The position numbers and the translations under genes are program-made. The notes under the pieces are model-generated. The model made no database searches, had not been told where the DNA came from, and saw nothing but the letters and a program-made list of their open reading frames with translations. A DNA stretch of 64,000 nucleotides from Thioclava marina (GTDB lineage Bacteria; Pseudomonadota; Alphaproteobacteria; Rhodobacterales; Rhodobacteraceae): contig NZ_MPZS01000002.1 in NCBI RefSeq assembly GCF_002020135.1, positions 372,001-436,000 of the forward strand. Direction: 5' to 3'. Positions 12,693-58,788 of this stretch are shown here, piece after piece; position 1 is the stretch's first letter, and the number at the start of each line of letters is the position of its first letter.

Positions 12693-12716
12693 CCGGAATG
12701 GCCCGAACCGCCGCGC

Positions 12717-14487: not shown

Positions 14488-14494
14488 GGGTCAG

Positions 14495-14523: not shown

Positions 14524-14531
14524 TCGCGCTC

Positions 14532-15740: not shown

Positions 15741-15934
15741 CTCTCTCCTGTCGTCGTTGCATCGATACGCGACCCGGCTCGACGCGGCCCGACCCGGCCA
15801 TGACCAATTGCCGCGCAGATGCGGACCGCCAATTCACGACTGCGTGAAGGACCAATGGGTGAGAGCGCGCTTTTTCTTGATTTTCGCCCGAGTCGGGCCG
15901 AGGCTGGAAATCCATAATGTGAAAGGGAGATCAC

Positions 15935-16369: not shown

Positions 16370-16375
16370 GGCAGG

Positions 16376-16515
16376 CAGGGGGCGCCGCCCCCTCGCGCTT
16401 ACGCGCTCACCCCCGGGATATTTGAACCAATTCGAAGAGCGAACAGGATCGGCCCTTCTTCTTGACGAAAATATCTCGGGGGTGAATTTGCGCAGCAAAG
16501 AGGGGGCAGCGCCCC
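16376..16515. repeat. Structured intergenic repeat, paired copy C
   Basis: Two facing half-units between convergent genes. The left half (minus strand) has AAATATCCCGGGGGTGA, hairpin GCGC-GTAA-GCGC and tail GGGGGCGGCGCCCC. The right half (plus strand) has AAATATCTCGGGGGTGA, hairpin TTGC-GCA-GCAA and tail GGGGGCAGCGCCCC. The hairpin arms differ in sequence but pair perfectly in both. Confidence 0.8.
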
Positions 16516-17888: not shown

Positions 17889-17889
17889 C

Positions 17890-45008: not shown

Positions 45009-45929
45009 TCAGGGATGGCTCTCCGCCTGAGCCAAGACCTCGGCAAGCACCGATACAGCCAGCAGTCGCGGCTCTCGCGCAGACCGGATCAACCCGATCG
45101 GTCCGTGAACCCGCGCGCGCGTCGCGGCAGCTAGACCACGAGCCTGCAAACCTTCCTGCCGTCGGGTCTGGGTGCGCACACTCCCCTGCGCCCCGATGTA
45201 GAAAGCCTGGGTCGCGAGCACCCCCTCGAGGATACCCAGCTCCCAATCGTGATCGTGGAATAGCAAGATCACGGCGGTGCGCGCGTCGATAGCAGCCTCT
45301 GGCGGAACTCCTGTACGGTTCAGTTGACGTACAGTGCAGCCGGCAGCCTTGGCATTGACGAAGGTGGCATCTTCCGGCGTGAAAAGAAGATGCGGCGCAC
45401 CGGTGGCGCGCACGAGATCCGCGAAAAACACCGCTTCGGCCCCTGCGCCGAAGATCACGAAGCGTGGCTCGGGGCGAAACGCGATGCGAAACCCGTCGGG
45501 TTTCCCGGACGCCGCGCCCTCCTCCGTAAAACGCAGATCGCCGGAAGCGCTCAGCCATAGCGCTGTCTCTTCGCGGCGGGCGCGACGTGCCGCGAGTTCA
45601 CCCAGCAACTCCCGGTCAGGTGCCGGGATCACGGTCACCTCGAGTGCTCCGCCGCAGGGCAGCTTCAGATCGAAAAAGGGCGAGCCCACGCCGTAGCGCA
45701 GCTTGCGAACCTTCCCGTCGAGGAGCGCCGCTCGCGCATGTTCGGCCACATCTTCCTCGATACAGCCAGCACTGAGCGCGCCGATGCGCCGACCGTCATG
45801 CAAGATCGCCATCGCAGTTCCGGCATTTCGATAGGCCGGACCTTCGATCCCCGAAATCACCGCAATCGCGCCGGGCGCTTCCGTCTGTGAAAGCTCCTGC
45901 CAGGGATCTTGCGCGGCGGGATGGGTCAT
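45009..45929 (-). CDS. XdhC-family molybdenum hydroxylase maturation protein
   Basis: A 306-residue XdhC/CoxI-like protein. The N-terminal XdhC_CoxI domain has GIEGPAYRNAGTAMAI and GALSAGCIEEDVAEHA with the conserved Cys (about residues 29-64). The C-terminal Rossmann domain has RFVIFGAGAEAVFFADLV (about 156-173) and the ending YIGAQGSVRTQTRRQEGL. XdhC proteins bind Mo-cofactor, support its sulfuration and insert it into xanthine dehydrogenase-type enzymes. It is the last gene of the 11-gene run, 10 bp after the amidohydrolase gene, and serves the hydroxylase encoded at 48604-52342. Confidence 0.9.
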   Translation of the reverse strand: MTHPAAQDPWQELSQTEAPGAIAVISGIEGPAYRNAGTAMAILHDGRRIGALSAGCIEEDVAEHARAALLDGKVRKLRYGVGSPFFDLKLPCGGALEVTVIPAPDRELLGELAARRARREETALWLSASGDLRFTEEGAASGKPDGFRIAFRPEPRFVIFGAGAEAVFFADLVRATGAPHLLFTPEDATFVNAKAAGCTVRQLNRTGVPPEAAIDARTAVILLFHDHDWELGILEGVLATQAFYIGAQGSVRTQTRRQEGLQARGLAAATRARVHGPIGLIRSAREPRLLAVSVLAEVLAQAESHP

Positions 45930-45939
45930 GGACGCCCCG

Positions 45940-47112
45940 TCATTCGTTCGCTCCGATCAGGGCACGCCGCGCGACCTCGACGAAGAATTGCACACCAAGC
46001 GGAAGGATCTCGTCGTTGAAATCATAGTGCGGGCTGTGGAGGTTGCGCCCGCCCTCGGCCGATCCATTCCCGATCCAGCCGTAAGCACCGGGAACCTTTT
46101 CCAAAAGGAAAGCGAAATCCTCGCTCGCCATGCTCGGCGCGTAATCGGTTTGCACCGCATCGCGCCCCACAATCGCCTCCGCCGCGCGGCGCGCAGTCTC
46201 GGCCGCCTCGGGGGAGTTGATCGTTGCCGGGTAGCGCCGCTGATAGGTTAGCTCGGCCGAGGCGTGGAATGCCTCAGCGATCATTTCGGCACGGCGCGTC
46301 ATCTCGGCCTGAACGAAATCGCGCGTCGCGGGCCGCAACGTGCGCACGGTGCCGCGCAGGATCACCTCATCGGGGATGACATTGAGCGTGTGGCCCGCAT
46401 GGATTTGCGTCACCGAAATCACCGCCGCGTCGGTCGGATCCACGGCGCGGCTGACGATGGTCTGCCAGGCCATCTGCAATTGCGCCGCGAGCGTGATCGG
46501 GTCGATCCCCTCATGCGGCATCGCACCATGCGATCCCCTGCCCATCACCTTCAGTTCGAACGTATCGAAAGCGGCCATGACGGGGCCTGCACGCATTGCG
46601 ATCCTGCCCGCCTCCAGCCCCGGCCAGTTATGCAGCGCATACGTGCTGTCGAGAGGGAATTGTTCGAGCAGGCCATCCTCGATCATCACCCGCGCTCCGC
46701 CTTCGTTTTCCTCGGCGGGCTGGAAGATGAATACGACTGTCCCCGGCCCGGGCGGATCGGCCGCCATCACCTGCGCGGCCCCGAGCAGCATCGTTGTATG
46801 CCCGTCATGGCCACAGGCATGCATTTTGCCGGGAGTTTCCGAGGCATAGTCGGCCCCGGTCAATTCCGCTATCGGCAGCGCATCGATATCAGCGCGCAGA
46901 CCGACACTTGGCCCCTCGCCATTGCGCAGAATGCCTATTACCCCGGTGCCGGCCAACCCCTCATGCACCTCAAGTCCGAAAGCCCGCAAGTGGGTGGCGA
47001 TGAAGGCGGCGGTCTCATGCTCCTCGAACGCCAGCTCGGGACGGCGATGCAGCGCGCGCCGCCACTCGACAAGCTGGTTTTCCATCGCCTTGATCGCCGG
47101 GGAGATATTCAT
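45940..47112 (-). CDS. M20-family amidohydrolase (M20D, hippurate/IAA-amide hydrolase type)
   Basis: A 390-residue zinc aminoacylase-like enzyme. Metal ligands are visible in GLRADIDALP (D about 75), MHACGHDGHT (C100, H102), the catalytic Glu pair in QPAEENEGGARVM and H in YALHNWPG; the last is in NLHSPHYDFND. A lid domain (about 180-300) carries GRGSHGAMPHEG. M20D enzymes cut amide bonds of N-acyl amino acids. In this operon it presumably hydrolyses an amide in the imported compound or in the product of the Mo hydroxylase. The start at 47112 is 11 bp after coxG. Confidence 0.92.
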   Translation of the reverse strand: MNISPAIKAMENQLVEWRRALHRRPELAFEEHETAAFIATHLRAFGLEVHEGLAGTGVIGILRNGEGPSVGLRADIDALPIAELTGADYASETPGKMHACGHDGHTTMLLGAAQVMAADPPGPGTVVFIFQPAEENEGGARVMIEDGLLEQFPLDSTYALHNWPGLEAGRIAMRAGPVMAAFDTFELKVMGRGSHGAMPHEGIDPITLAAQLQMAWQTIVSRAVDPTDAAVISVTQIHAGHTLNVIPDEVILRGTVRTLRPATRDFVQAEMTRRAEMIAEAFHASAELTYQRRYPATINSPEAAETARRAAEAIVGRDAVQTDYAPSMASEDFAFLLEKVPGAYGWIGNGSAEGGRNLHSPHYDFNDEILPLGVQFFVEVARRALIGANE

Positions 47113-47123
47113 CGCGCGTCCTT

Positions 47124-47714
47124 TCAACCGAAGAGCCAGCAGATCCCGAGACCAAGACCGAGACCGACCAGAAGCCATGCGACACGGTCGATCAGCGGGA
47201 TATGCCCCGCTGCGGCAGCGGCCATCGCGCCCGGCCGAGCAGAGCCCTCACGGGCAGGAGTCTCTGACTCGGCCTCTCCGGTCACGACCCGCGAGAAGGC
47301 ATTGAAGAAATCCTCAGCATTCTTGCGTGCGACGCCCTGTATCAACCGTCCGCCAACCGCCGCGAGCTTACCGCCCACCTCGACATCGGCGATGTAGGAC
47401 AACCGCGTGCCGTCGCCCTCGGGAGAGAGCCTGATTTCCGCGCCCCCTTTGGCAAAGCCCGCAGGCCCGCCCTGCCCGCGTCCGGTGATCCGGTAGGACA
47501 CGGGCGGGACCAGATCGGACAGCTCGACCTTGCCGCGAAAGCTTGCCGCAACCGGCCCAACCCGTGCGACGACTGTCGCGGTATATTCGGCCTCACCTGT
47601 CTGCTCCATCGCCTCGCAGCCCGGTATCGCGCGGCGCAAGACCTCCGGATCGTTGAGCCCGCGCCATACCGTTTCAGGATCCGCCGGGATCAGGTGATCG
47701 CCCTCGAACTGCAT
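47124..47714 (-). CDS. CoxG-family SRPBCC protein with C-terminal membrane anchor
   Basis: A 196-residue protein. The CoxG/SRPBCC domain (about 1-145) opens MQFEGDHLIPADPETVWRGL and has AIPGCEAME and GGAEIRLSPEGDGTRLSY. After a variable linker a single transmembrane helix ends the chain (VAWLLVGLGLGLGICWLFG). In Oligotropha CoxG recruits CO dehydrogenase to the membrane, and this protein could do the same for the hydroxylase here, putting it near the quinone pool. It starts in the stop codon of the upstream gene (TGATG). Confidence 0.9.
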   Translation of the reverse strand: MQFEGDHLIPADPETVWRGLNDPEVLRRAIPGCEAMEQTGEAEYTATVVARVGPVAASFRGKVELSDLVPPVSYRITGRGQGGPAGFAKGGAEIRLSPEGDGTRLSYIADVEVGGKLAAVGGRLIQGVARKNAEDFFNAFSRVVTGEAESETPAREGSARPGAMAAAAAGHIPLIDRVAWLLVGLGLGLGICWLFG

Positions 47715-48604
47715 CAACCCGCCTCCGAGTGGATCGCGTTATATGCACGGTAGAGCGCTTGCGTGCCCTCTTCACCGAACCCATCGTCCTTGAGCTTGAG
47801 ATACAGGCTCCGCGCGAGAGCGAGGCCCGGCAGATCGAGACCAAGTCTTTCGGTCTCATCCAGCGCGATGGTCATGTCCTTGACGAAGTGGTGAATGAAG
47901 AAACCGGGAGCGAAATCCTCTTCTACCATTTTCGGCCCGAGCCCGTTGAGCAGAAAGCTCGATGCCGCCCCGGTTCCGATAACCTTCAGAACCTGCGCAG
48001 GATCCAAACCGGCGGCACGGGCGTAGCTGACGCTTTCGGCCACCGCGAGCATGGTCGAGGCGATCGCGATCTGGTTCGCCATCTTGGTGTGCTGGCCTGC
48101 ACCTGCCTTGCCCATCAGCGCGATATTCGCCCCCATCACTTCCAGCACCGGCAACACACGATCGAAGGTGCGTTTGTCGCCCCCCACCATGATCGCGAGC
48201 TTTCCCGCTTTCGCGCCGACATCGCCACCCGAAACCGGGGCATCTAGGGCCGCAACACCGCTCAAGAGACCCGATTGCGCGATCCGCGCGGCGAGGGCCG
48301 GACTCGAGGTGGTCATGTCGATCAGCACGGATCCCGGCCGCGCGCTGGCGAGGATCCCGCCATCCGCGAGATAGACCTGTTCGACATCGGCAGGGTAGCC
48401 CACGATCGTGATCGTGATGTCGCTGGCCGCGGCAACCGCACCGGGGCTGTCACACCACTGAGCGCCCCGTGCCACCAGATCGTCGCCCTTGGCGCGGGTG
48501 CGATTGTAGATATTGAGCGGGTAGCCCGCAGCGAGGATGTGCCCCGCCATGTGGTGCCCCATGATTCCGAGGCCAATGAAGCCGACAGTGGGTTTCTGTT
48601 CCAT
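47714..48604 (-). CDS. NAD(P)-dependent 3-hydroxyisobutyrate-dehydrogenase-like oxidoreductase
   Basis: A 296-residue beta-hydroxyacid dehydrogenase. The N-terminal Rossmann motif is VGFIGLGIMGHHMAGHIL (about residues 7-24). The substrate motif is LDAPVSGGDVGAKAGKLAIMVGG (about 115-137) and the catalytic Lys is in GQHTKMANQIAIA (about 170). The family includes 3-hydroxyisobutyrate dehydrogenase and tartronate semialdehyde reductase GarR; the exact substrate cannot be told. It overlaps the large hydroxylase subunit gene (TGATG) and the coxG gene, so it belongs to the same pathway. Confidence 0.92.
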   Translation of the reverse strand: MEQKPTVGFIGLGIMGHHMAGHILAAGYPLNIYNRTRAKGDDLVARGAQWCDSPGAVAAASDITITIVGYPADVEQVYLADGGILASARPGSVLIDMTTSSPALAARIAQSGLLSGVAALDAPVSGGDVGAKAGKLAIMVGGDKRTFDRVLPVLEVMGANIALMGKAGAGQHTKMANQIAIASTMLAVAESVSYARAAGLDPAQVLKVIGTGAASSFLLNGLGPKMVEEDFAPGFFIHHFVKDMTIALDETERLGLDLPGLALARSLYLKLKDDGFGEEGTQALYRAYNAIHSEAG

Positions 48605-50982
48605 CACAGCTGGGTCCTTTTCGCTGGGCTGGTCGCTGCCTCTTGCAGGAGCGCACAAATGGATTGAGGGGTCAGCGGAAGACGCTCGATCGTCATTCCG
48701 TGGGGGGCGAGCGCATCGCTCACCGCATTGGCGATCACACCGATCGCGCCCATCACTCCGCCTTCGGCCATGCCCTTGATCCCGGCAGGCGTGCGTTGGT
48801 TCGGAGTGTGGTGATGCAGGATCTCGAATTCGGGCAATTCATTCGGGGAGGCCACGAGATAATCGGCGAGCGTCGCCGAAAGGTTCTGCCCGGCGCCGTC
48901 ATAGATCACCTGTTCGAGCAGCGCGCCGCTCAGCCCCATCGCGATCGCGCCCTGCTGTTGGCCGCGCACGACGATCGGATTGAGAACGGTGCCGCAATCC
49001 TCGGCCACGATATAGCGGTCGATCGAGATCGCACCCGTTTGCGGATCGACCTCCACTTCGCAGGCATGGGTCGAATTCGAATAGGTCATCGCTGGCGGGT
49101 CATAGCTATGCGAGAAATCGAGCCCCGGCGCGACACCCTCTGGCAGCGCCAGCGGGTCGAGATAGGCACGCCGCGCGATATCCGTCAGAGCAAGCCCGGT
49201 TTTCTGCCAATCCTCACCGATCATTCGCTCGATGTGCCCCGCGCGCATCCGCAGCCCGCCAGCATCGTTGAGATCAAGCATCGAAGCCGCGATCGCGAGC
49301 ACCCGCTCGCGCGCCTTGAGCGCGCACAGATAGAGCGTCCCGCCCCCGGCAGTGGCGCCGCGACCGCCGCGGCTGCCCATGCCGTAGGGCGCGATGTCCG
49401 TGTTGCCCATGTGGACCGTGACGTCTTCCGAGCGCACTCCGAGTCCTTCGGCCACGGCCTGCGCAAGCGGACTCTCGTAGCCCTGCCCCGTGCCCATCAG
49501 CCCGACGGAGGCATTGACCGCCCCGCTGGGTTCGATCCGCACCCACGCAGCCTCGTGCCCCGATCCCGGGATGCCGGCGGATTTGTAGAATTCCGATCCA
49601 TAGGTCGTGCTTTCGATCACGGTGCACAGCCCGAGCCCCAGATACCTCCCCTCGGACCGCGCCCGCGCTTGCCGCTCACGGAACGCCGCGACATCGATTG
49701 CGGCAACGGCGGTTTCAAGCGTTTCCTTCGGGGTGACATCTTCAAGGACTTCGCCCGTCGGCATCGTGTAGGGCAGGTCCCCCGGGCCAAGCGCGTTGAT
49801 ACGGCGCACTTCAACCGGGTCGAGGCCGAGCTCGCGGGCAATCGCGTCGATCGTGCCTTCCATCACCCAGCTCGTGACCGCCATCGGCGCACGCATAGGA
49901 CCGGCGCCGCATTTGTTCGTCAGGGCGACGCGAACCTCATAGGCATAATCCTGGATGCGGTACGGGCCGGTCATGATGAGCGCGATGACCCGCGCCATGT
50001 AATTGGCCGGGTAGAAGCAATAGCCTCCGAAATCCTCGTCGATCTCGAGTTCCAGCCCGAGGATCTTACCCGTTTCGCTGACCGCGGCGCGTGTGCGACA
50101 CTCGTATTCGCGCGCATGGGCGGCGGCCATCAGGTTTTCCATCCGATCCTCGCGCCAACGCAGCGGGTGGCGGAGATGACGCGAGAGAGCCGCCACAGCG
50201 AGTTCCTCGCGGTAAAGCGCGATCTTCTGACCGAACGCGCCGCCGACATCGGGGCTCATCACCGTGACCTGGCTTTCGGAGAGGCCCAGCCGCGCGGCGA
50301 GCTGGCTGCGCAGCGGGTGCGGAACCTGATTGCCGATATGCATATTCAGATGCGCTCGGCCGTCGTCCCAATCGGCAACGCAGCCGCGCGTCTCGAGGGG
50401 GGCATGCGTGTGGCGGTGGAGGGCGAAACGCGCCGAGACCACGCGATGGGCCTCTGCCCGCCGTGCTGCGGGATCGCCGACACACAGACTTTGGTGCGAG
50501 ACCATGTTGCTGGACAAGGTTTCATCGACCAGCACGGCATCGGGCGCAAAGGCCTCTTCGATCGAGGTCACGGCCGGGATTTGTTCATAGTCGACAACGA
50601 CACATTCGGCCGCATCCTCGGCGAGGTAGCGATCTGTCGCGACCACACAGGCCACGGGATCGCCATGAAACCGCACCTTGTCGATCGGCAGCGTCGTGAG
50701 CTCGGTCGGCTGCAACCCCTCGATCGGCGGAGCGAGGCGCAGCCGCGTCGTCCACTGATCGAGATCGCGTCCGGTGAATACACCCATGACGCCCGGCATT
50801 GCAGCGGCTTCAACGCTGTCGATCCCGAGGATGCGAGCATGGGCATGCGGCGAACGCACAAAGCTCACATGCAGCGCGCCAGGAAAGGCGAGGTCGTCGA
50901 GATAGCGGCCGCGGCCAGTGACGAGACGGCGGTCTTCCTTGCGCGGCAGGGCGCGACCGATCTCGGTGAAGGCGTCGCTCAT
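48604..50982 (-). CDS. Molybdenum hydroxylase large subunit (CoxL/XdhB family, molybdopterin-binding)
   Basis: A 792-residue Mo-cofactor subunit. The N-terminal part has GRALPRKEDRRLVTGRGRYLDD; the MCD-binding stretches include MSPDVGGAFGQKIALYREE (about 235-253) and GSRGGRGATAGGGT. The catalytic Glu is in KGMAEGGVMGAIGVIANAV near residue 750. Where CO dehydrogenase has AYxCSFR and form II CoxL has AYRGAGR, this protein has GPMRAPM (about residues 357-363), so it is neither a true CO dehydrogenase nor a standard form II protein. It hydroxylates an unidentified carbon centre. Overlaps neighbours on both sides. Confidence 0.92.
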   Translation of the reverse strand: MSDAFTEIGRALPRKEDRRLVTGRGRYLDDLAFPGALHVSFVRSPHAHARILGIDSVEAAAMPGVMGVFTGRDLDQWTTRLRLAPPIEGLQPTELTTLPIDKVRFHGDPVACVVATDRYLAEDAAECVVVDYEQIPAVTSIEEAFAPDAVLVDETLSSNMVSHQSLCVGDPAARRAEAHRVVSARFALHRHTHAPLETRGCVADWDDGRAHLNMHIGNQVPHPLRSQLAARLGLSESQVTVMSPDVGGAFGQKIALYREELAVAALSRHLRHPLRWREDRMENLMAAAHAREYECRTRAAVSETGKILGLELEIDEDFGGYCFYPANYMARVIALIMTGPYRIQDYAYEVRVALTNKCGAGPMRAPMAVTSWVMEGTIDAIARELGLDPVEVRRINALGPGDLPYTMPTGEVLEDVTPKETLETAVAAIDVAAFRERQARARSEGRYLGLGLCTVIESTTYGSEFYKSAGIPGSGHEAAWVRIEPSGAVNASVGLMGTGQGYESPLAQAVAEGLGVRSEDVTVHMGNTDIAPYGMGSRGGRGATAGGGTLYLCALKARERVLAIAASMLDLNDAGGLRMRAGHIERMIGEDWQKTGLALTDIARRAYLDPLALPEGVAPGLDFSHSYDPPAMTYSNSTHACEVEVDPQTGAISIDRYIVAEDCGTVLNPIVVRGQQQGAIAMGLSGALLEQVIYDGAGQNLSATLADYLVASPNELPEFEILHHHTPNQRTPAGIKGMAEGGVMGAIGVIANAVSDALAPHGMTIERLPLTPQSICALLQEAATSPAKRTQL

Positions 50983-51476
50983 GCCGCCTCTCCCCGCATC
51001 CGCGCGGCAGCCTTCAGCACTGCAGCCACGATATTCTGATAGCCCGTGCAGCGGCACAGATTCCCCGACAATACGTCACGCACTTCATCTGCGGTCGGGG
51101 CCGGGTTCTCGCGCAGGTAGTGTTCGAAGGTCATCACGATGCCGGGTGTGCAAAAACCGCATTGCAGCCCGTGTTCCTCATGCAGAGCCTGCTGCAGGAC
51201 CGAGAGAGCATCGGGCCGCCCTACAGCCTCGATCGTGGTAATATCGTGACCTTCCATCTGGGCTGCGAAGGTCAGGCAGGCGCGTGCCGGACGCCCGTCG
51301 ATCAGCACGGTACACGCACCGCAGACGCCGTGCTCGCAACCAACATGGGTGCCCGTCAGGCCGAGATCCTCGCGCAGAACATCCGACAGCAGCTTGCGCG
51401 CGGGCACCTGCAAATCATAGGTCTGGCCATTCACGCTCAGCGACAGGGTCAGGGGCTCAGGTTTGTGAGCGTTCAT
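50979..51476 (-). CDS. Molybdenum hydroxylase small subunit, [2Fe-2S]
   Basis: A 165-residue CoxS-type subunit with two iron-sulfur clusters. The N-terminal plant-type set is C47, C52, C55 and C67; the C-terminal helical set is C106, C109, C141 and C143 (GLQCGFCTPG and GNLCRCTGYQNIV). It moves electrons from the Mo site to FAD in the medium subunit. It overlaps the large-subunit gene by 4 bases and the medium-subunit gene by 4 bases. Confidence 0.95.
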   Translation of the reverse strand: MNAHKPEPLTLSLSVNGQTYDLQVPARKLLSDVLREDLGLTGTHVGCEHGVCGACTVLIDGRPARACLTFAAQMEGHDITTIEAVGRPDALSVLQQALHEEHGLQCGFCTPGIVMTFEHYLRENPAPTADEVRDVLSGNLCRCTGYQNIVAAVLKAAARMRGEAA

Positions 51477-52342
51477 GCGCCCTCCTCCCGGTTCAGAGCG
51501 GACTGGAACGCCCGAATGACAAGCGTTTCGGCCAGCCTCCGGCGATAGCTTGCGGGCACCTGCGCGCTGTCCTCTGGCGCAATCGCCGAGGCAGTTGCCG
51601 CAGCGAGCTCGCGAATGGTGTCTTCATCTGCCGGCCTGCCCTGCGCGCGCGCCTCGATCTCGGGCAAGCGCAGCGGGACGGTATCGACGCCACCGAGACC
51701 GAGCCTCAGCGCATCGATCTTGCCGTCCGCATCCTGCGCGAAGTTCAACGCAACGCTCACGATCGCGAAATCCCCATGGCGGCGCGAGAAATGTTCGAAG
51801 GCCCAAAAACCGCCAACAGGCAGCGGAAAGCGAAGGGCGGTGATGAGTTCGCCATCGCGCAGATCGACTGTCATGATCGATTGCAGGAAATCGGCCGCAA
51901 CGACGTTTCGAGTGCCCTGCAGACCCGCGATCACCAGCGACGCGCCGAGGGTCACCGCAATCAGCGGCAATTGGGCCGCCGGGTCCGCATGGGCGAGACT
52001 GCCGCCGATCGTTCCGCGCTGCCGGATGGCGTAGTGCCCGATGGATGCGGCGGCGGCACTCAGAAGAGGAAGGCTGCGGCGCAATTCCGGCGCATTCGCC
52101 ACGCGGTGATGGCGCGTCAGTGCGCCGATCTCGACCATGTCATCGCTCACCCGGACGCTGTCGAGCTCGATCAAGTCGTTGAGATCGACGAGATGGTCCG
52201 GCCGCGCCAGCCGCATGTTCAGCATCGGACCGAGGCTTTGCCCCCCGGCGAGCGACTTCGCGGAAGACCCGTGCGTGCGCAAAAGCGCCAAAGCCTCTGC
52301 AAGACTCGCGGGCCGGTGGTAGGTGAATTGGGCCGGTTTCAT
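51473..52342 (-). CDS. Molybdenum hydroxylase medium subunit, FAD-binding (CoxM type)
   Basis: A 289-residue FAD subunit of the xanthine-dehydrogenase family. The first flavin motif AKSLAGGQSLGPMLNMRLARP (about residues 32-52) and the second TIGGSLAHADPAAQLPLIAV (about 110-130) match the AGGQS and TIGGN patterns. The CO_deh_flav_C domain fills the last 100 residues. It passes electrons to an acceptor, probably a quinone or an electron carrier. Gene order medium-small-large is that of cox operons. It begins 4 bp after the ATPase gene. Confidence 0.94.
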   Translation of the reverse strand: MKPAQFTYHRPASLAEALALLRTHGSSAKSLAGGQSLGPMLNMRLARPDHLVDLNDLIELDSVRVSDDMVEIGALTRHHRVANAPELRRSLPLLSAAAASIGHYAIRQRGTIGGSLAHADPAAQLPLIAVTLGASLVIAGLQGTRNVVAADFLQSIMTVDLRDGELITALRFPLPVGGFWAFEHFSRRHGDFAIVSVALNFAQDADGKIDALRLGLGGVDTVPLRLPEIEARAQGRPADEDTIRELAAATASAIAPEDSAQVPASYRRRLAETLVIRAFQSALNREEGA

Positions 52343-52346
52343 CGCT

Positions 52347-53456
52347 TCAGACTGCGTTCCAGATCAGCGACTGACCGGTTTCACGATCGAAGATGTGCAG
52401 GCGGTTGAGGTCAACGGCGAGGGTGATCTCCTCACCGAAGGCGTGGCGTAGATCCTTGCCGACGCGGAAGAACAGCTCTTCGCCGCCGAAATCCATTCCC
52501 AGGTACTGGTCCGAGCCGACCGGAAGCACCGAATTCACGGTGCCGCTCAGCGCGTTGACCTCAAGCTCCGCAGGGCCTTCGGCGACATCCTCGGCCCGGA
52601 TACCTAGCCGCACCGCGCGGCCGTCCTGCCCTTTGAGTCGCGCCGCATGAGCCGCCGGCAAAGCGAGACGCAACCCGTCACGGATGAAGCTCATCCGGTC
52701 ATCCGGCCCGACTTCGAGCACCCCGTCGAAATAGTTGATCGGCGGGCTCCCGAGGAAGGAAGCGACGAAGGTGTTCGCCGGACGCTCGTAGATATCATCC
52801 GGCGTGCCGATCTGCTGCACAACACCGTCATTCATCACCACGATACGATCCGCGAGGGTAAGCGCCTCGGCCTGATCGTGGGTCACATAGACGAAAGTCG
52901 TCTGCATCGCGCGATGGAGTTCCTTGATCTCCGCACGCATCGAAATCCGCAACGCCGCATCGAGGTTCGAGAGAGGTTCGTCCATCAGGAATACCGCAGG
53001 CTCGCGAACCATCGCGCGCCCCAGCGCCACACGCTGACGCTGGCCGCCCGAGAGCTGCGACGGGCGTCGGTCGAGCAAATGGGAAATCTCGAGTTTTTGC
53101 GCCGCGTCGCGCACGCGCCTGTCGATCTCTTCCTTCGACACGTTCCGCATCCGTAAACCGAAGCCGATATTGTCGTAGACCGTCTTGTGCGGATAGAGCG
53201 CGTAGCTCTGGAAGACCATCGCGACGTCGCGCTTGTGCGGGGGGACGTAATTCACAACCTGCTCGTCGAAGATCAGATTGCCGTCCGAGACCTCCTCGAG
53301 CCCCGCGATCATGTTGAGGGTCGTGGATTTGCCGCAGCCCGACGGGCCAAGCAGGACGATGAACTCGCGATCCTCGATATCGAGGTTGAGATCGCGAACG
53401 GCGTGGAAGCCGTTGGCGTATTTCTTGTTGACGTTGGTGAAGCGGATCCGGGCCAA
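52347..53456 (-). CDS. ABC transporter ATP-binding protein (UgpC/MalK type)
   Basis: A 369-residue ATPase of carbohydrate-uptake type 1 (CUT1) importers. Walker A GPSGCGKSTT (about 37-46), the signature LSGGQRQRVALGRAM (about 135-149), Walker B VFLMDEPLSNLD (about 154-165) and switch His (VTHDQAEA) are intact. The C-terminal TOBE domain (about 240-360) is of the MalK kind. It drives import by the permeases encoded just upstream. Such ATPases serve sugars, polyols and glycerol phosphates, so the family name does not fix the substrate. Confidence 0.95.
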   Translation of the reverse strand: MARIRFTNVNKKYANGFHAVRDLNLDIEDREFIVLLGPSGCGKSTTLNMIAGLEEVSDGNLIFDEQVVNYVPPHKRDVAMVFQSYALYPHKTVYDNIGFGLRMRNVSKEEIDRRVRDAAQKLEISHLLDRRPSQLSGGQRQRVALGRAMVREPAVFLMDEPLSNLDAALRISMRAEIKELHRAMQTTFVYVTHDQAEALTLADRIVVMNDGVVQQIGTPDDIYERPANTFVASFLGSPPINYFDGVLEVGPDDRMSFIRDGLRLALPAAHAARLKGQDGRAVRLGIRAEDVAEGPAELEVNALSGTVNSVLPVGSDQYLGMDFGGEELFFRVGKDLRHAFGEEITLAVDLNRLHIFDRETGQSLIWNAV

Positions 53457-53469
53457 GACTTTGTCCTTT

Positions 53470-54435
53470 CTAACCTTTGACAGCCCCGGCGGTCAGACCG
53501 GAAACGATGTAGCGTTCGAAGACGATTGCGACGATGACAGGCGGCACGACTGCCAGAACGCCCGCGGCGTTGAGGAAGGAGAAGCTCACCGTGAAATCGG
53601 AGGTGAACGAGGCCAGTAGGATGGGGAGGGTCTGCGACGCCGAGGTCTGAGTGAACATCAGGGCGAGCAGGAACTCGTTCCAGCTGGCGAGGAAGGTGAA
53701 CAGCACCACGGCGACGAGGGAGGGCAGCGAGAGCGGCAGGAACACCTTGATCAGCGCCTGCAATCGGGAACAGCCATCAACTCGTGCGGCCTTGTCCAGT
53801 TCGTCGGGAAGTCCCTCGAAGTACTGGATCATGATGAAGACCGTGAACGGAACCGTGATCGCAAGGTAAGTGATCACGAGCGAGCCCAGCGTATCGAGCA
53901 TCCCGAGTTTGCGGATCACGAGGAAGAACGGCACGACCAACGCAATATCGGGGATCACCCGCGTGATCAGGATGAAATAGACGGAAGCATTACGCCCCCA
54001 AAACCGGATCTTCGCGATCGCATAGGCGGCGGGCACCCCGACGAGAAGATTGAGGATCACAACAAGCGTCGCAACGATGAGGCTGTTGAGCATCGAAGGC
54101 AGAAGGTTCTTCGCGGTCGAGGGGATGAAATCACCTGCGGCCGGATCAGTGCCCGAGCGCGTCTCGTAGGTGACCGGCTCGCTGTCTCCGGCGGTGAAGA
54201 TCGCCTCGAAATTGCGCAATGTCGGCTCGTCGGGGATCCAGTGCGGCGGGATCGAGACGATCTCGGCCTCGGTCTGGAAGGCCGACGAGACAAGCCAGGA
54301 AACCGGGGCGAGCACATAGATCGCCAGGACGATCGCGGAGACGACGATCACGAGCCGCTGCACGATGCGCGCAATTTTCTGGCGGCGGCGGTAGTCGATC
54401 GCGTCGGCGGGAGGGGTGTTGGGCATATCGGTCAT
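53470..54435 (-). CDS. ABC transporter permease (MalG-like)
   Basis: A 321-residue inner-membrane permease with about six helices. The first is at about 24-44 (IVVSAIVLAIYVLAPVSWLV), and a long periplasmic loop follows. The EAA motif, the ATPase contact, is LPDELDKAARVDGCSRLQALIKVFLP (about 205-230). It lies 13 bp before the ATPase gene and 1 bp after the MalF-like permease. Start at 54435 was chosen as the first ATG after that stop. Confidence 0.92.
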   Translation of the reverse strand: MTDMPNTPPADAIDYRRRQKIARIVQRLVIVVSAIVLAIYVLAPVSWLVSSAFQTEAEIVSIPPHWIPDEPTLRNFEAIFTAGDSEPVTYETRSGTDPAAGDFIPSTAKNLLPSMLNSLIVATLVVILNLLVGVPAAYAIAKIRFWGRNASVYFILITRVIPDIALVVPFFLVIRKLGMLDTLGSLVITYLAITVPFTVFIMIQYFEGLPDELDKAARVDGCSRLQALIKVFLPLSLPSLVAVVLFTFLASWNEFLLALMFTQTSASQTLPILLASFTSDFTVSFSFLNAAGVLAVVPPVIVAIVFERYIVSGLTAGAVKG

Positions 54436-54436
54436 A

Positions 54437-55348
54437 TCAGAGTTTGCGCCCCAGCGTTCGGATGAAGAGATAGGAAAGCGCGAAGGTCGCGATCGCGAGC
54501 AGGTAGGACATCGCGGCCCCACTCCCGAAGGAGAGGTTGCGGAAGGTCTCGACATAGATGTGCCAGGACAAGACATGCGAGGCGCTGCCGGGACCGCCCT
54601 CGGTCAGCACGAAGAACAGATCGAAATGGCGGATTGCCATCATCGTCTCGTAGATCATCACCAGCATGAAACCGGGCTTCATCGCAGGCAGGGTGACATG
54701 GACGAAGCGCTGCCAGACCGTCGCGCCATCGACGCGGGCGGCCGAATACAGATCCGCAGGGATCGACTTGAGCGAGACCAGAAGAAGGATCGTCGCGAGC
54801 GGGACTTCCTTCCACACGAAAGCGTTCGCGATCAGGAACAGCGTCTTGTCCTGATCACCGAGCCAGACCATGTATTTGTCAATGAAGTCAAGCTGGTAGA
54901 GCAGACCGTTCAGGGCGCCATAACTGGAATCGTAGATCCATTTCCACATCAGCGCATTCGCCACGTAGGGGATTGCCCAAGGCACCAGCAGGATCGTGGA
55001 GAGGATGCGGCGACCGCGGAACTCCTGGTTCAGCAGCAGCGAAACAAGCAATGCGATCACCGCGATCGCACTGACAGAGACGAGCGAGAAACTCACCGTG
55101 CGCCAGACCGCGCTCCAGAAAGCCGCGTCCCCCAGCAGATCGGTATAGTTCTTGAGGCCGACGAAGGGCGTCCGGTTCGGCCGCGTGAGCTTGACGCTGA
55201 AAAAGCTGATGTAGAGCGAATAGAGGATCGGGAAGACGGCAACCGCACCCAGCACAACCATTACCGGAGCAAGGAACAGCATGGCGCTGCGCTCTTCGTA
55301 TCCCAGCCGCCATCTCGGGCGCGTCGCCCCAATCATTGCATCCGCCAC
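54437..55348 (-). CDS. ABC transporter permease (MalF-like)
   Basis: A 303-residue permease with about six helices; the first is AMLFLAPVMVVLGAVAVFPILYSLY (about 22-46). The EAA motif is IPADLYSAARVDGATVWQRFVHVTLP (about 195-220). The chosen start is GTG at 55348, with GGGAG 7 bases upstream; an ATG four codons in (55336) and another at 55408 are poorer. It forms the membrane channel with the MalG-like protein. Confidence 0.9.
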   Translation of the reverse strand: MADAMIGATRPRWRLGYEERSAMLFLAPVMVVLGAVAVFPILYSLYISFFSVKLTRPNRTPFVGLKNYTDLLGDAAFWSAVWRTVSFSLVSVSAIAVIALLVSLLLNQEFRGRRILSTILLVPWAIPYVANALMWKWIYDSSYGALNGLLYQLDFIDKYMVWLGDQDKTLFLIANAFVWKEVPLATILLLVSLKSIPADLYSAARVDGATVWQRFVHVTLPAMKPGFMLVMIYETMMAIRHFDLFFVLTEGGPGSASHVLSWHIYVETFRNLSFGSGAAMSYLLAIATFALSYLFIRTLGRKL

Positions 55349-55413
55349 GTCATGCTCTCCCGTTGCCCAGCCCGTCAGTCGGCGGGCCTTCGCAAAGGCC
55401 CGCCGCACCGGGA

Positions 55414-56745
55414 TCAGTAGCTGTCCTTCAGCTCATTCCACAGATCTGCGGATTTCTTGACCGCCCCTGCGGCATCGACATTACCCAAGATCGCCGATTG
55501 CCAGGCCGAGCCATTGGTGTCGTTCCACTCCCCGAACCACGGCGTGACCGTGTCCTTCTTGAGGGCAAGCGCCTGCTGGGCCTGGATCATGTCGACATCG
55601 CCGTAGGAGTCGTAGGCGGCGCGGACCTCCTGATCCTCGAATAGCGGCTTTACGCCGAACCCGGCGCCGATATCGAGGAACAGGAGCTTCTGGAACGTGT
55701 AGGCCCCATCGGACTTACCGCCGAACCATTCAATCAGCTTTGCGGTGCTTTCGGCGCGCGCCTTGTCCTGCGCCGCTTGTGCCGACATGCCATGGAAGCG
55801 CATCCACCCCACCGTCGCATGAGATCCGTTGGGCCCTTGCGGCATCATCGCCTGCTTCACGTTGCCCGCGATCTGCGATTGTGCGGGATCGTTCAGCATC
55901 CGCAGACGATATTTCGCGACCATCGCGAAGGCATGGTTGCCCGCAGCGAAGGACTTCAACCCCGCCAACTCACCGGTCTCGACACAGGCGGGCGAGACGA
56001 TCTTGTGCTTGTTGACCGCATCGACGACCCATTGCAGCGCCTCGACGGCCCCTTCCTTCTCGTCTTGCATCACGGCCGAGCCGCTGTCGTCGACCAACCG
56101 TCCGCCATGCGAATAGACGAGCGTCGAGATGAACTCGATCAGCCAGCTTTCCTGCGCCATCGCGAGCATCATCGGATAGTCGGAAATGCCCTTTTCCTTC
56201 ATGACCAGAGACTGCTCCACCAGCTCGTCCCAGCTCGTCGGCGGCGCATCGAAGCCGGCTTCCTTGAGCTTCGCCTCGTCATAGAGGAAGGCCATGTAAT
56301 CTGTGTAATAGGTCAGGCCGTATTGCCGACCGTCATAGGTCATCGACTGGGTGCAGAAATCCTCGGCTTCGGCGTTGTATTTCATCAGGCTGTCGAATTC
56401 GTCGACCGGTGCGATCCAGCCGGCCTCGGCCCATTCAGGCAGCCAGGCGTCCGATACCCACATCGCATCAAGCGGCGCGCCCCCGACGAATTTCGCGACC
56501 ATCCCCTCGCGGTACTGCGCCCAAGGAGAGTTTCCGTAATTCACGGGGATCCCCGTTTCCTTCGTAAACGCGCTGAGGTGGCTCTGCACGGTGTCGACCG
56601 CGGCCGACCAGGTATGCATCGTCAGCGTGGCCGTTTCAGCACGTGCCTGACGAACCAGACCCGGCGCCATCAGCGCCCCTGCGCCCGCCGCCGAATAGCG
56701 GAGGAAATCCCGGCGCCCGAGGTGGCGCGTCTTGTCCTTTAGCAT
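55414..56745 (-). CDS. ABC transporter substrate-binding protein (CUT1 type, Tat-exported)
   Basis: A 443-residue periplasmic binding protein, first gene of the operon. The leader has a twin-arginine motif GRRDFLRYSAAGAGALMAPG, with cleavage near ARA-ET (about residue 37). The mature part is a type 1 extracellular solute-binding protein with landmarks TLTMHTWSAAVDTV, PLDAMWVSDAWLPEWAEAG and YYTDYMAFLYDEAKLKEAG. Tat export is unusual but known for this family. The ligand is unknown. AAAGGAA before the ATG, and an operator lies 115 bp upstream. Confidence 0.92.
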   Translation of the reverse strand: MLKDKTRHLGRRDFLRYSAAGAGALMAPGLVRQARAETATLTMHTWSAAVDTVQSHLSAFTKETGIPVNYGNSPWAQYREGMVAKFVGGAPLDAMWVSDAWLPEWAEAGWIAPVDEFDSLMKYNAEAEDFCTQSMTYDGRQYGLTYYTDYMAFLYDEAKLKEAGFDAPPTSWDELVEQSLVMKEKGISDYPMMLAMAQESWLIEFISTLVYSHGGRLVDDSGSAVMQDEKEGAVEALQWVVDAVNKHKIVSPACVETGELAGLKSFAAGNHAFAMVAKYRLRMLNDPAQSQIAGNVKQAMMPQGPNGSHATVGWMRFHGMSAQAAQDKARAESTAKLIEWFGGKSDGAYTFQKLLFLDIGAGFGVKPLFEDQEVRAAYDSYGDVDMIQAQQALALKKDTVTPWFGEWNDTNGSAWQSAILGNVDAAGAVKKSADLWNELKDSY

Positions 56746-56837
56746 TATTCGATTCCTTTTGCGTGGCCGCCCGCCGCGGGCCCCATCCGAGCCCCGCCGC
56801 AGCAAACCGTCCCTGTTGAACTTTCTTATAAGAATCG

Positions 56838-56873
56838 ACGCTATTGGCGATTTATTAATTCGTCAACTGACGA
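56838..56873 (-). promoter_or_regulatory. Promoter and TetR operator of the ABC / Mo-hydroxylase operon
   Basis: TCGTCA-AC-TGACGA (56860-56873) is a palindrome with perfect 6-bp arms. On the minus strand it contains the -35 hexamer TTGACG (56861-56866), with TAGCGT (56838-56843) 17 bp away as a fair -10. Binding by the adjacent TetR protein would block the -35. Confidence 0.7.
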
Positions 56874-56983
56874 CAAAACGAAAAGTGATGATTCAACTTC
56901 CCCTAAGGAAATTGCACAAATTTTCACCACCCACAGCCGTCACCGCAGGGGGAAATCCAAGAAAAGAGAACCGATTGTTGCGG

Positions 56984-57679
56984 TCAGTCGCCGCGACACG
57001 CGTCGATCATGTCGGCAAATCCCGCGACGAACAGGCGAACATGCATCGAAACCACCTGATCCTCGGACAGGGACAGGCTGCTTTGATAGATATGGCGCCG
57101 AATTGCGTAGTGAGAGATCGCGCCATGCAGCGTCCATGCCATTTCACGGAGCAATGCCGGATCAGCCGGCAGGACGACCCCTTTCTCGTGCGCCACCTCG
57201 CGCATCACAACTTCCAGCAGCTGGGTGATGATCGCAGCGATGTAATCGGGCGCCATATTCGCCTCGGCCAAGGAGGCATAAAGGAACAAACGCAGCCATT
57301 TGCGGGTCAGGGTGGACTGGAGATAGTCGCGATAAAAGGCCTCGAGCCGCACCGAAACCGGCTGCGAGCGATCCTGGAGCTCCACGAACCAAACCGCCTT
57401 GAATGCCCCGAGGATCTCCTGGTTATAGACCTCCCGGAGAAGGTCCTCCTTGGTCGGAAAGAAGCGATAGAGGAGACGCTGAGAAATGCCGCATTTCTCT
57501 GCCAGTTGACGCGTCTGCCCCGCAAGACCGTTCTCGGCAAAGAAGTCGGAAGCGACATCCAGAATCTGCGCGCGACGCTCATTGAACGGCATGCGGACCG
57601 CCCCCTGCGGCGAGCCCGGCTTGCTTCCCGCCCCCCCCACCTTGGATGAGCCCTCTTTCGTCATCGATCTGGCCTGCAC
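56984..57679 (-). CDS. TetR-family transcriptional regulator of the Mo-hydroxylase regulon
   Basis: A 231-residue regulator. After a 25-residue polar N-terminal extension comes the helix-turn-helix (about 30-76), with RRAQILDVASDFFAENGLAG and the recognition part ISQRLLYRFFPTKEDLLREVY. The C-terminal half is helical and probably binds the pathway inducer. The start is GTG at 57679 with AAGGAGG 4 bases upstream; an ATG five codons in is possible. It lies between two copies of a TCGTCA-N2-TGACGA operator, so it very likely controls the ABC/Mo-hydroxylase operon, itself and the NIPSNAP-mocA pair. Confidence 0.9.
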   Translation of the reverse strand: MQARSMTKEGSSKVGGAGSKPGSPQGAVRMPFNERRAQILDVASDFFAENGLAGQTRQLAEKCGISQRLLYRFFPTKEDLLREVYNQEILGAFKAVWFVELQDRSQPVSVRLEAFYRDYLQSTLTRKWLRLFLYASLAEANMAPDYIAAIITQLLEVVMREVAHEKGVVLPADPALLREMAWTLHGAISHYAIRRHIYQSSLSLSEDQVVSMHVRLFVAGFADMIDACRGD

Positions 57680-57776
57680 GTTACCTCCTTCGCACTCATT
57701 CTCTCAACACTGACGCCGGACGCCACGCCCTCAGGATTACACATTAGCCCATTGTGCGCATCGGCAAAGCATCTTT

Positions 57777-57790
57777 TCGTCAATTGACGA
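57777..57790. promoter_or_regulatory. TetR operator in the tetR / NIPSNAP divergent promoter
   Basis: TCGTCAATTGACGA is a perfect 14-bp palindrome. It carries TTGACG -35 hexamers on both strands and lies 97 bp before the NIPSNAP start and 98 bp before the tetR start. It shares both 6-bp arms with the operator at 56860-56873. Confidence 0.72.
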
Positions 57791-57886
57791 CTTAAACGTT
57801 GCGAAAACCTGAACTCTTGCCTTAGCCTCGGATCGAAACGGCGCGCCAGCGTCCGAGAGTCCACACCAATCATGCCGGAGCGCATC

Positions 57887-58198
57887 ATGATCTACGAACA
57901 AAGAACCTATCGCATCACGCCCGGGAAAGCGCCTGAGTTCCTCAAGCTCTACGAAGCCGAGGGGCTCCATATCATCAGCCAGTACGCGAAGCTCGCCGGA
58001 TGCTGGGTCAGTGACAGTGGCGTGTTGAACGCCGTCACGTTTCTTTGGGCCTATCAGGATTACGCCCACCGCAGCGCACAAAGAGCCAAACTCGGCGCAG
58101 ACCCGCAGTGGCAGGAGTTCGTTCCCAAGATCCTTCCCTATCTCGTCCATCAGGAAAGCATCTTCCTGCAACCCGCCGCTTTCTCTCCACTGGACTGA
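57887..58198 (+). CDS. NIPSNAP-family protein
   Basis: A 103-residue dimeric alpha/beta-barrel protein. The family opening MIYEQRTYRITPGKAPEFLKL is at the N-terminus, followed by LAGCWVSDSGVLNAVTFLWAY and a HRSAQRAKLGADPQWQEF helix. NIPSNAP proteins have no defined chemistry, but bacterial ones are common in catabolic operons. The start at 57887 has GGAG 6 bases upstream and fits the family start better than the ATG at 57872. It is 14 bp before the MocA-like gene and shares its promoter. Confidence 0.88.
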   Translation: MIYEQRTYRITPGKAPEFLKLYEAEGLHIISQYAKLAGCWVSDSGVLNAVTFLWAYQDYAHRSAQRAKLGADPQWQEFVPKILPYLVHQESIFLQPAAFSPLD

Positions 58199-58212
58199 GC
58201 CGGGGGCGTTCC

Positions 58213-58788
58213 ATGCGCACGCTCGGCATTCTGCTCGCCGCTGGCGCCTCCCGTCGGTTCGGGGCTCAAGACAAGCTCCTCGCCGATTGGGAGGGCGCGC
58301 CTCTGGTTGTGGCGGCGGCGCGTGCGCTTGAAGCGGCGGGCTGTGACGCGCTCCTTGCGCTCGTCTCTTCCGATGCGGTCGAAGCCGTACTCCCCGCACC
58401 GTTCCGGGCAATCCGGGTGGCGCCAGGCCTGCCGCTTTCTCATACTTGGCGAGCGGCGCGTGACCACGCGCAACAGCTGCAAGCGGAACGCGCCCTGTTC
58501 ATGCTGGGCGACATGCCCTCGGTTTCCGCCGGAACAATCCGAACGCTGATGGCTGACGACGGCGGCAGCCGCGCCTGCGTCTTCGATGGGATCCCGATGC
58601 CACCGGCACTCTTGACGGCAGACGACATGCGGGGATTACGCGCAGAGGAAGGAGACCAAGGCGCGCGCGCGCTGCTGCGCTCCCTGCCCCACAACTCGCT
58701 TGTGCCCCTGACGGCCGAAGAAGCCCGTGATATCGATACACCGAAAGACCTCTGCCGCGATCGGGTGCCCCCGGTCGTTCGCCCATGA
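58213..58788 (+). CDS. MocA-like molybdenum cofactor cytidylyltransferase
   Basis: A 191-residue nucleotidyltransferase. The opening LGILLAAGASRRFGAQDKLLADW (about residues 4-26) has the LAAG-x-SxRxG-x-K signature, and the metal motif is FMLGDMPSVS (about 96-105). This form is that of MocA, which adds CMP to Mo-molybdopterin to give MCD, the cofactor of xanthine-oxidase-family enzymes. It lies in the same operator-controlled region as the Mo hydroxylase, and XdhC is at the far end of that operon. Dedicated cofactor supply is the likely role. Confidence 0.85.
   Translation: MRTLGILLAAGASRRFGAQDKLLADWEGAPLVVAAARALEAAGCDALLALVSSDAVEAVLPAPFRAIRVAPGLPLSHTWRAARDHAQQLQAERALFMLGDMPSVSAGTIRTLMADDGGSRACVFDGIPMPPALLTADDMRGLRAEEGDQGARALLRSLPHNSLVPLTAEEARDIDTPKDLCRDRVPPVVRP

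What the first reader, a model, noticed from the sequence alone, without database searches (positions are those of the whole stretch)
45009..58788. Undescribed catabolic island: CUT1 importer, Mo hydroxylase, dehydrogenase, amidohydrolase and cofactor maturation under one TetR regulator
Seen: 11 minus-strand genes from 56745 to 45009, with gaps of at most 67 bp and several ATGA/TGATG overlaps, encode SBP-MalF-MalG-MalK-CoxM-CoxS-CoxL-HIBADH-CoxG-M20-XdhC. A tetR and a divergent NIPSNAP-mocA pair complete it. Known: Mo hydroxylases attack C-H next to N or C=O, M20D enzymes split amides, HIBADH-like enzymes oxidise 3-hydroxy acids. Inferred: a route for an imported N-containing compound (heterocycle, lactam or acylated amine). 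I know no described pathway with this gene set.
Basis: partly seen in the sequence, partly recalled or inferred. Interest (0 to 1): 0.85.

Follow-up and report, generated by a model that had tools for sequence, protein, structure and literature searches.

The report
Regulated uptake-and-oxidation gene cassette, substrate unknown
A set of about a dozen bacterial genes, kept together as one unit beside one regulator, appears to import an unknown, probably nitrogen-containing compound and oxidise it with a molybdenum enzyme of an uncharacterised type.

Summary
The genes are as described: eleven packed minus-strand genes (SBP-MalFGK-CoxMSL-HIBADH-CoxG-M20-XdhC), tetR, and a divergent NIPSNAP-mocA pair. 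Of 25 loci with this CoxL clade, 21 keep tetR, SBP, MalFGK, CoxL and HIBADH together (Rhodobacterales, Rhizobiales, Burkholderia); of these, CoxM, CoxS and NIPSNAP are in 21, CoxG in 20, M20 in 18. XdhC and MocA stand beside it only in Thioclava (4 of 21). A palindrome, TCGTCA-NN-TGACGA, lies perfectly upstream of SBP and of NIPSNAP and nowhere else in the genome; it is perfect before SBP in 20 of 21 loci. SBP and CoxL occur in the same 6 of 394 family genomes. CoxL is neither form I nor form II CO dehydrogenase: its clade reads PMRAPM in the active-site loop (26 of 26; 0 of 27 comparison sequences). Best reading: an imported compound is hydroxylated, electrons probably reach quinone via CoxG, and an amide is split later. 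The substrate is not shown; an N-acyl amino-sugar route is a serious rival. No described pathway with this gene set was found, in an open-access library only.

The parts
45009..45929 (-). xdhC: Mo-hydroxylase maturation factor (role in cofactor sulfuration recalled); accessory, seen beside the cassette only in Thioclava
   Evidence: PF13478 3.6e-22, PF02625 6.6e-17; next to the cassette in 4 of 21 loci; second copy of the domain elsewhere in the genome
45940..47112 (-). m20: M20D amidohydrolase/aminoacylase; metal-ligand motifs intact
   Evidence: PF01546 8.1e-47, TIGR01891 356.6 bits over cut-off 153.75; present in 18 of 21 loci; motifs
47124..47714 (-). coxG: SRPBCC-type protein with a hydrophobic C-terminal segment (judged by eye); proposed membrane anchor/quinone link of the hydroxylase
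   Evidence: PF06240 5.9e-33; 20 of 21 loci; tail aligned to or near its end in 16 of 20 rows
47714..48604 (-). hibadh: beta-hydroxyacid dehydrogenase family, substrate unknown
   Evidence: PF03446 2.9e-50, PF14833 2.4e-32; below every NCBIfam equivalog cut-off listed
48604..50982 (-). coxL: large molybdenum subunit of a distinct hydroxylase clade (PMRAPM loop)
   Evidence: PF02738, PF20256, PF01315; closest solved chain quinoline 2-oxidoreductase 1t3q_B, 505 bits; clade and motif
50979..51476 (-). coxS: 2x[2Fe-2S] subunit
   Evidence: PF01799, PF00111
51473..52342 (-). coxM: FAD subunit
   Evidence: PF00941, PF03450; 7dqx_B 184 bits
52347..53456 (-). malK: ABC importer ATPase (UgpC/MalK type)
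   Evidence: PF00005, PF17912; NF008653 above cut-off
53470..54435 (-). malG: permease
   Evidence: PF00528
54437..55408 (-). malF: permease (true start may be 55348 or 55336)
   Evidence: PF00528; starts
55414..56745 (-). sbp: CUT1-type solute-binding protein with a twin-arginine motif (GRRDFLRY)
   Evidence: PF01547 3.2e-26; RR motif found by a simple pattern in 17 of 21 loci
56860..56873 (.). palindrome TCGTCAACTGACGA, proposed TetR operator for the sbp operon
   Evidence: one of only 2 perfect matches in the genome; perfect core in 20 of 21 loci
56984..57664 (-). tetR regulator
   Evidence: PF00440 8.2e-12; in 21 of 25 clade loci
57777..57790 (.). palindrome TCGTCAATTGACGA, proposed TetR operator for nips-mocA
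   Evidence: second of the 2 perfect genome matches; at most one mismatch in 17 of 21 loci on this side of tetR
57872..58198 (+). nips: NIPSNAP-family small protein, core member, role unknown
   Evidence: PF07978 1.3e-26; 69 of 102 residues identical to 5ixu_A; in 21 of 21 full cassettes
58213..58788 (+). mocA: MobA-like nucleotidyltransferase, likely molybdenum cofactor cytidylyltransferase (name inferred); accessory
   Evidence: PF12804 2.8e-21; next to the cassette in 4 of 21 loci

Best explanation
The unit is a self-contained catabolic regulon. A TetR repressor bound at two palindromes keeps the sbp...xdhC operon and nips-mocA off until an inducer appears (inferred from conserved palindromes). 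A CUT1-type ABC importer takes up a small compound (shown by family). The CoxMSL molybdenum hydroxylase then acts on that compound, probably as the first step, inserting oxygen at a carbon next to nitrogen (or oxidising an aldehyde); that it comes first is inferred because importer plus CoxL is the part kept in the divergent loci L049 and L050. Electrons probably pass to quinone at the membrane with the help of CoxG (inferred from other CoxG proteins). The hydroxylation creates or exposes an amide that an M20D amidohydrolase splits, and the HIBADH-type enzyme oxidises or reduces a 3-hydroxy/3-oxo acid formed on the way (both inferred from family chemistry). XdhC and MocA supply matured molybdenum cofactor in Thioclava. 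The likeliest substrate is an N-containing compound (heterocycle, lactam or acylated amine); its identity is unknown.
For: Cassette kept in 21 of 25 clade loci; pairwise distances of the 12 proteins correlate (r 0.60-0.97); binding protein and CoxL in the same 6 of 394 family genomes; palindromes; island borders; Mo-hydroxylase residues kept (FGQK, GxxR-type arginine, KGMxEG) and no CODH loop; closest solved large subunit is quinoline 2-oxidoreductase, closest medium subunit 6-hydroxypseudooxynicotine dehydrogenase; three different amide-splitting enzymes beside members or relatives: M20D, Amidase in L050, PxpABC in Thermomicrobium L064; CoxG as membrane or quinone partner (PMC4240915, PMC13240472, PMC11962113, passages).
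Against: No substrate, inducer or activity is known. CoxS and CoxM score best in NCBIfam against glyceraldehyde dehydrogenase subunits, though below cut-off, which suits an aldehyde substrate; and CoxM scores 4zoh (161 bits), recalled as the Sulfolobus glyceraldehyde enzyme, as high as quinoline oxidoreductase (162). The binding protein resembles sugar-binding proteins. M20 is missing in 3 of 21 cassettes (L039, L046, L056), with best paralogues of only 46-49% elsewhere in those genomes, so it is not strictly needed. CoxG is missing in L041. The four other clade loci lack tetR and hibadh in the stretches held (several are cut by contig ends); L049/L052 pair CoxL with acetoin-dehydrogenase-type genes, which the scheme does not explain. 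One of the CoxG papers found CoxG not needed for electron transfer (PMC11962113, passage).
Confidence: 0.6

Rival explanations
1. Oxidative route for an N-acylated amino sugar or similar: the CUT1 importer brings in the sugar, CoxMSL oxidises its aldehyde/hemiacetal carbon to an acid, which makes it an N-acyl amino acid, M20D deacylates it, and the HIBADH-type enzyme oxidises the beta-hydroxy acid.
For: Sugar-type binding protein; CoxS/CoxM best NCBIfam matches are glyceraldehyde dehydrogenase subunits; closest named M20D relatives act on N-acyl amino acids (with substrate knowledge recalled); oxidised GlcNAc is deacylated by a relative of amino-acid deacylases in a marine bacterium (PMC9537276 and PMC12017989, passages).
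Against: CoxL is far closer to quinoline oxidoreductase (505 bits) and CO dehydrogenases (388-445) than to 4zoh (266). No kinase, isomerase or aldolase in the cassette. The known GlcNAc-acid deacetylase OngB is of another fold family.
Confidence: 0.2
2. A detoxification module: TetR senses a toxic xenobiotic or plant compound that the hydroxylase inactivates, without supporting growth.
For: TetR beside a small set of palindromes; patchy distribution and differing genomic sites (8 of 16 genomes of the genus).
Against: A dedicated importer argues for use as food; CoxG points to energy recovery (both inference).
Confidence: 0.1
3. A true aerobic CO dehydrogenase operon with an unrelated sugar transporter beside it.
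For: Subunit order M-S-L plus CoxG; NCBIfam CODH_aero_grp5 is the best CoxL match (533 bits).
Against: That match is far below its cut-off of 950; the loop reads PMRAPM, not (A/S)YRCS(F/L)R, with alanine where the CODH sequences have the cysteine after the arginine (its copper role recalled); importer and CoxL occur in the same six family genomes; no coxD/E/F-like gene was identified within the cassette (the rest of the genome was not searched for them).
Confidence: 0.02
4. A plain sugar importer that happens to sit beside a hydroxylase operon.
For: CUT1 family membership.
Against: The same 6 of 394 genomes carry both; correlated divergence; palindrome before sbp and tight packing into coxMSL.
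Confidence: 0.03

Closest known systems
Quinoline 2-oxidoreductase (Qor, 1t3q)
   Same: L/M/S molybdenum hydroxylase; highest-scoring solved large subunit (505 bits); loop arginine and KGMxE glutamate align
   Different: Loop reads PMRAPM where Qor has AYRGVG; importer, HIBADH and M20 genes in the operon
[quoted passage not shown]
   Same: A CoxG homologue has been proposed as its membrane anchor (passage); that it is an N-heterocycle Mo hydroxylase is recalled
   Different: No sequence comparison could be made here; the original paper did not appear in the library
Aerobic CO dehydrogenase, forms I and II
   Same: M, S, L subunits and a CoxG partner
   Different: Lacks the (A/S)YRCS(F/L)R and AYRGAGR loops; NCBIfam scores far below cut-off
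Nicotinate fermentation (Mo nicotinate dehydrogenase, enamidase, 2-hydroxymethylglutarate dehydrogenase)
   Same: Mo hydroxylase plus amide hydrolysis plus HIBADH-family enzyme (pathway recalled; 3hrd and 3cky appear as relatives)
   Different: Neither is the nearest relative; different hydrolase family and a ring reductase step (recalled)
Oxidative chitin (GlcNAc1A) catabolism, ong cluster
   Same: Oxidised acylated compound imported and split at its amide
   Different: OngB is a TIM-barrel D-aminoacylase relative and the transporter is of the SSS family (passages)

Membership tests
Molybdenum hydroxylase (xanthine oxidase) family | L subunit Moco domains, FAD subunit and 2x[2Fe-2S] subunit | tested here: met
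   Pfam domains above cut-off
Molybdenum hydroxylase (xanthine oxidase) family | Catalytic glutamate in the KGxxE motif (role recalled) | tested here: met
   present in the window and in 24 of 25 clade loci (L052 is cut right after it); L055 does not reach it
Form I aerobic CO dehydrogenase | (A/S)YRCS(F/L)R loop | tested here: not met
   PMRAPM in 26 of 26 clade members (25 loci and the window); motif definition read in PMC13240472 (passage)
Form II 'CO dehydrogenase' | AYRGAGR loop | tested here: not met
   definition from PMC13240472 (passage)
NCBIfam CODH / glyceraldehyde dehydrogenase models | score above curated cut-off | tested here: not met
   CoxL 533 vs 950 and 493 vs 790; CoxS 202 vs 290; CoxM 244 vs 350
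CUT1 ABC importer | SBP_bac_1, two BPD permeases, MalK/UgpC-type ATPase | tested here: met
CUT1 ABC importer | carbohydrate as substrate | not testable with these tools
beta-hydroxyacid dehydrogenase (HIBADH) family | Rossmann GxGxxG-type motif, DAPVSGG, catalytic lysine (roles recalled) | tested here: met
   GFIGLGIMG (one I-to-V change), DAPVSGG and GxGQHxK in 21 loci plus the window
any named HIBADH equivalog (GarR, HIBADH, threonate DH) | score above curated cut-off | tested here: not met
   best 244 vs 340.75
M20D amidohydrolase | TIGR01891 above cut-off and metal-ligand motifs (roles recalled) | tested here: met
   356.6 vs 153.75; HACGHD, PAEE, HNWPG and the C-terminal His kept in 18 loci plus the window
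TetR-controlled regulon | TetR gene with a conserved palindrome at its presumed target promoters | tested here: met
TetR-controlled regulon | TetR binds the palindrome and represses | not testable with these tools
   needs a binding assay
Mobile element | terminal repeats or an integrase in the unit | tested here: not met
   longest exact repeat between the border stretches 8 nt direct and 9 nt inverted; shuffles (direct) mean 8.4, largest 11; none of the cassette genes is an integrase

The most novel reading that the evidence does not exclude
The cassette encodes an undescribed aerobic pathway for an N-heterocyclic or acylated natural compound, in which a dedicated ABC importer feeds a new subfamily of molybdenum hydroxylase (PMRAPM loop) whose electrons go to quinone through CoxG, and which has spread as a relocating unit between marine and soil Proteobacteria.
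Probability: 0.4. Interest if true: 0.65.

Novelty: new variant of a known kind. Interest (0 to 1): 0.5.

Why it matters
If right, one ligand screen of one binding protein would name the substrate of an entire orphan regulon found in marine and soil bacteria, give a function to a molybdenum hydroxylase clade with its own active-site signature, and add a route for turnover of dissolved organic nitrogen.

Tried and rejected
Homarine-type catabolism was considered (nine papers listed, listing only, none opened). Tetramethylpyrazine degradation was considered because of the acetoin-dehydrogenase genes in L049/L052 (four papers listed, none on point by title). Chitin-acid catabolism was looked at in passages: different enzyme families. 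CO oxidation was rejected on the active-site loop. Neighbours of the best relatives of single genes gave no consistent clue: M20 in Azospirillum beside an L-2-amino-thiazoline-4-carboxylate hydrolase and a branched-chain amino-acid-type importer, HIBADH in Paenibacillus, SBP at 27% in Rhizobium, NIPSNAP in Burkholderia anthina. Flanking genes scanned in other loci are varied and include transposase-type genes in L039, L043 and L046. Distant relatives L066-L070 showed no partner set like this one; their unlabelled ORFs were not scanned. No terminal repeats. The loose pattern scan of the window (one mismatch allowed) found 2 matches against 2.97 expected, so by itself it shows nothing; the case rests on both being perfect, on the genome scan and on conservation.

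Rows dropped: L058 (33% CoxL) was left out of clade counts. L049, L050, L052 and L055 were counted as clade members but not among the 21 full cassettes. The 21 were selected for having tetR, sbp, malF, malG, malK, coxL and hibadh, so those seven are 21 of 21 by construction. The genome's own second hydroxylase (L001) was put into the database for the tree but did not pass its filters. The tree was not rebuilt without the long branches that the tool flagged.
Full report
What is there. The window lies in a 3.65-Mb genome whose nearest named relatives are Thioclava. The largest uncertainty is the malF start.

A conserved cassette. CoxL relatives of at least 59% identity were found in 23 of 24 loci returned from the genome collection (the 24th, L058, is 33%) (the scan starts from six exact 8-residue patterns and can miss kin) and in 2 of 1074 matching plasmid-collection records. 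Of these 25 loci, 21 carry tetR, sbp, malF, malG, malK, coxL and hibadh; this is how the 21 were chosen. Among them coxM, coxS and NIPSNAP are in 21 of 21 (NIPSNAP divergent upstream of tetR in 20, next to m20 in Burkholderia L034), coxG in 20 (missing in L041), m20 in 18 (missing in L039, L046, L056). XdhC and MocA neighbour the cassette in 4 of 21, all Thioclava; L042 has more distant xdhC and mocA relatives beside a second hydroxylase. In genome samples the clade is rare: 6 of 394 in the family; in the class sample only the own genome of 385, with two further hits at 40-41%; in the phylum sample only the own genome of 398; in the genus 8 of 16. Some genomes recur between these collections, so the counts overlap.

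Importer and hydroxylase belong together. The binding protein at E<=1e-60 is found in the same 6 of 394 genomes as CoxL; these six fall into five genera, so they are not six independent events for the two from one genus. Pairwise divergences of the twelve proteins across the loci correlate with r between 0.60 and 0.97; this shows common transmission, not physical interaction. In the divergent L049 the importer, and in L050 its ATPase at the contig end, is still beside CoxL while other genes differ: acetoin-dehydrogenase-type genes in L049 (the E2 subunit passes its acetoin-dehydrogenase cut-off; the E1 subunits match pyruvate-dehydrogenase-type models), an Amidase gene before coxMSL in L050. 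L052 has E1/E2 genes directly before CoxL without the importer between and ends inside CoxL; L055 is too short to tell. CoxM and CoxS were not found in the 14.4 kb held around CoxL in L049, which ends 2 kb downstream at a contig end; CoxS relatives exist elsewhere in that genome. From this I infer that the hydroxylase acts on the imported compound itself.

Regulation. TCGTCA-NN-TGACGA occurs perfectly at 56860-56873 and 57777-57790 and nowhere else in the genome; three further places have one mismatch and were not followed; the reversed control pattern gave one place at up to one mismatch. Upstream of sbp the core is perfect in 20 of 21 loci and has one mismatch in the other. On the other side of tetR it is perfect in 10, with one mismatch in 7 (one of these, L034, has no nips there), two in 2 and three in 2. 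In 2000 simple shuffles of one 300-bp stretch the best site had one mismatch in 0.05%, two in 0.8% and three in 8.6%, so the last two loci are not significant. That TetR binds these sites is inferred.

An island in the literal sense. Aligned to the seven other genomes of the genus that have CoxL, homology runs from 45018-45033 to 58756-58766 (to 58199 in L101, which shows no mocA match at these settings) and stops; the window's flanks (hisF-hisE and valS) gave no match of 100 bp or more in these loci within the stretches held. The flanks of L035, of the L036/L037/L100 group and of L054 do not match each other either, so with the window there are at least four contexts; L101 and L102 matched none of these flanks but were not compared with each other. 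In genome G1124, which lacks the CoxL clade, the hisF-hisE and valS flanks lie on different contigs, so no simple empty site was seen. No terminal repeats or integrase were found. CoxL is 91-92% identical to the window's in these genomes and ValS 88-94%, so relocation with old residence is likelier than recent arrival; horizontal spread between families was not tested against a species tree.

The hydroxylase. All 26 read PMRAPM in the active-site loop; none of the 27 comparison sequences does (24 from the family search, two from the class search, one from Thermomicrobium). Form I CO dehydrogenase needs (A/S)YRCS(F/L)R and form II AYRGAGR (PMC13240472, passages), so it is neither. The closest solved relative of CoxL is quinoline 2-oxidoreductase (505 bits), then CO dehydrogenases (388-445). 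CoxM is closest to 6-hydroxypseudooxynicotine dehydrogenase (184), but CO dehydrogenases (148-171), quinoline oxidoreductase (162) and 4zoh (161) are close behind. In NCBIfam, CoxS and CoxM score best, below cut-off, against glyceraldehyde dehydrogenase, which keeps an aldehyde substrate open.

Other steps. CoxG has a hydrophobic C-terminal segment that aligns in 16 of 20 rows (the other four alignments stop early; no membrane predictor was run). CoxG proteins recruit partner enzymes to the membrane (PMC4240915, PMC11962113, passages) and are proposed to deliver electrons to quinone (PMC13240472, passage), but the Sulfolobus study found CoxG not needed for electron transfer. M20 is a clear M20D enzyme. 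HIBADH is below the cut-off of every named subfamily listed, and its nearest listed plasmid-collection relatives outside the cassette are in Bacillota at 51-56%. NIPSNAP shares 69 of 102 residues with the solved protein 5ixu, deposited as uncharacterized; its role is unknown.

What is not known. The substrate. Amide-splitting enzymes of three kinds next to members or relatives of this hydroxylase (M20D; Amidase; PxpABC beside the 42% Thermomicrobium relative) favour a nitrogen compound, but this is circumstantial. Ten literature searches were made in an open-access library that lacks most subscription journals. Four aimed at this gene set: searches returned no paper, and (84 papers held the terms, 10 listed; 27 held, 12 listed) listed none that describes it by title or abstract opening. 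The others asked about pyrazine/acetoin (50), homarine (52), CoxG (57, 61), 3-hydroxypyridine (62) and chitin oxidation (71). Of five papers I saw passages; of all others only search listings.

Noticed in passing
L049:2401-12346 and L052:4943-10632: Two related metagenome genomes place CoxL of this clade behind acetoin-dehydrogenase-type genes; in L049 the same importer lies between, and CoxM/CoxS are not in the stretch held.
   Followed up: partly
L064 (Thermomicrobium roseum plasmid) 7576-18351: A 42% relative of CoxL with its CoxM and CoxS stands before a TorT-like binding protein with an ABC importer and a PxpABC-type oxoprolinase set, another hydroxylase-importer-amide grouping.
   Followed up: partly
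window 55414-56745: The binding protein carries a twin-arginine motif, found by a simple pattern in 17 of 21 loci, so it may be exported folded.
   Followed up: partly
window 47714-48604: The HIBADH-type enzyme has its closest listed relatives outside the cassette in Bacillota records (51-56%), suggesting a separate, unnamed subfamily.
   Followed up: no
L033:13992-16381: CoxL of the Ciceribacter thiooxidans record lies in two overlapping frames, a broken gene or a sequencing error.
   Followed up: no
G000:C1:178176, G000:C2:256026, G000:C3:12149: Three one-mismatch copies of the palindrome elsewhere in the genome could be further targets or chance.
   Followed up: no
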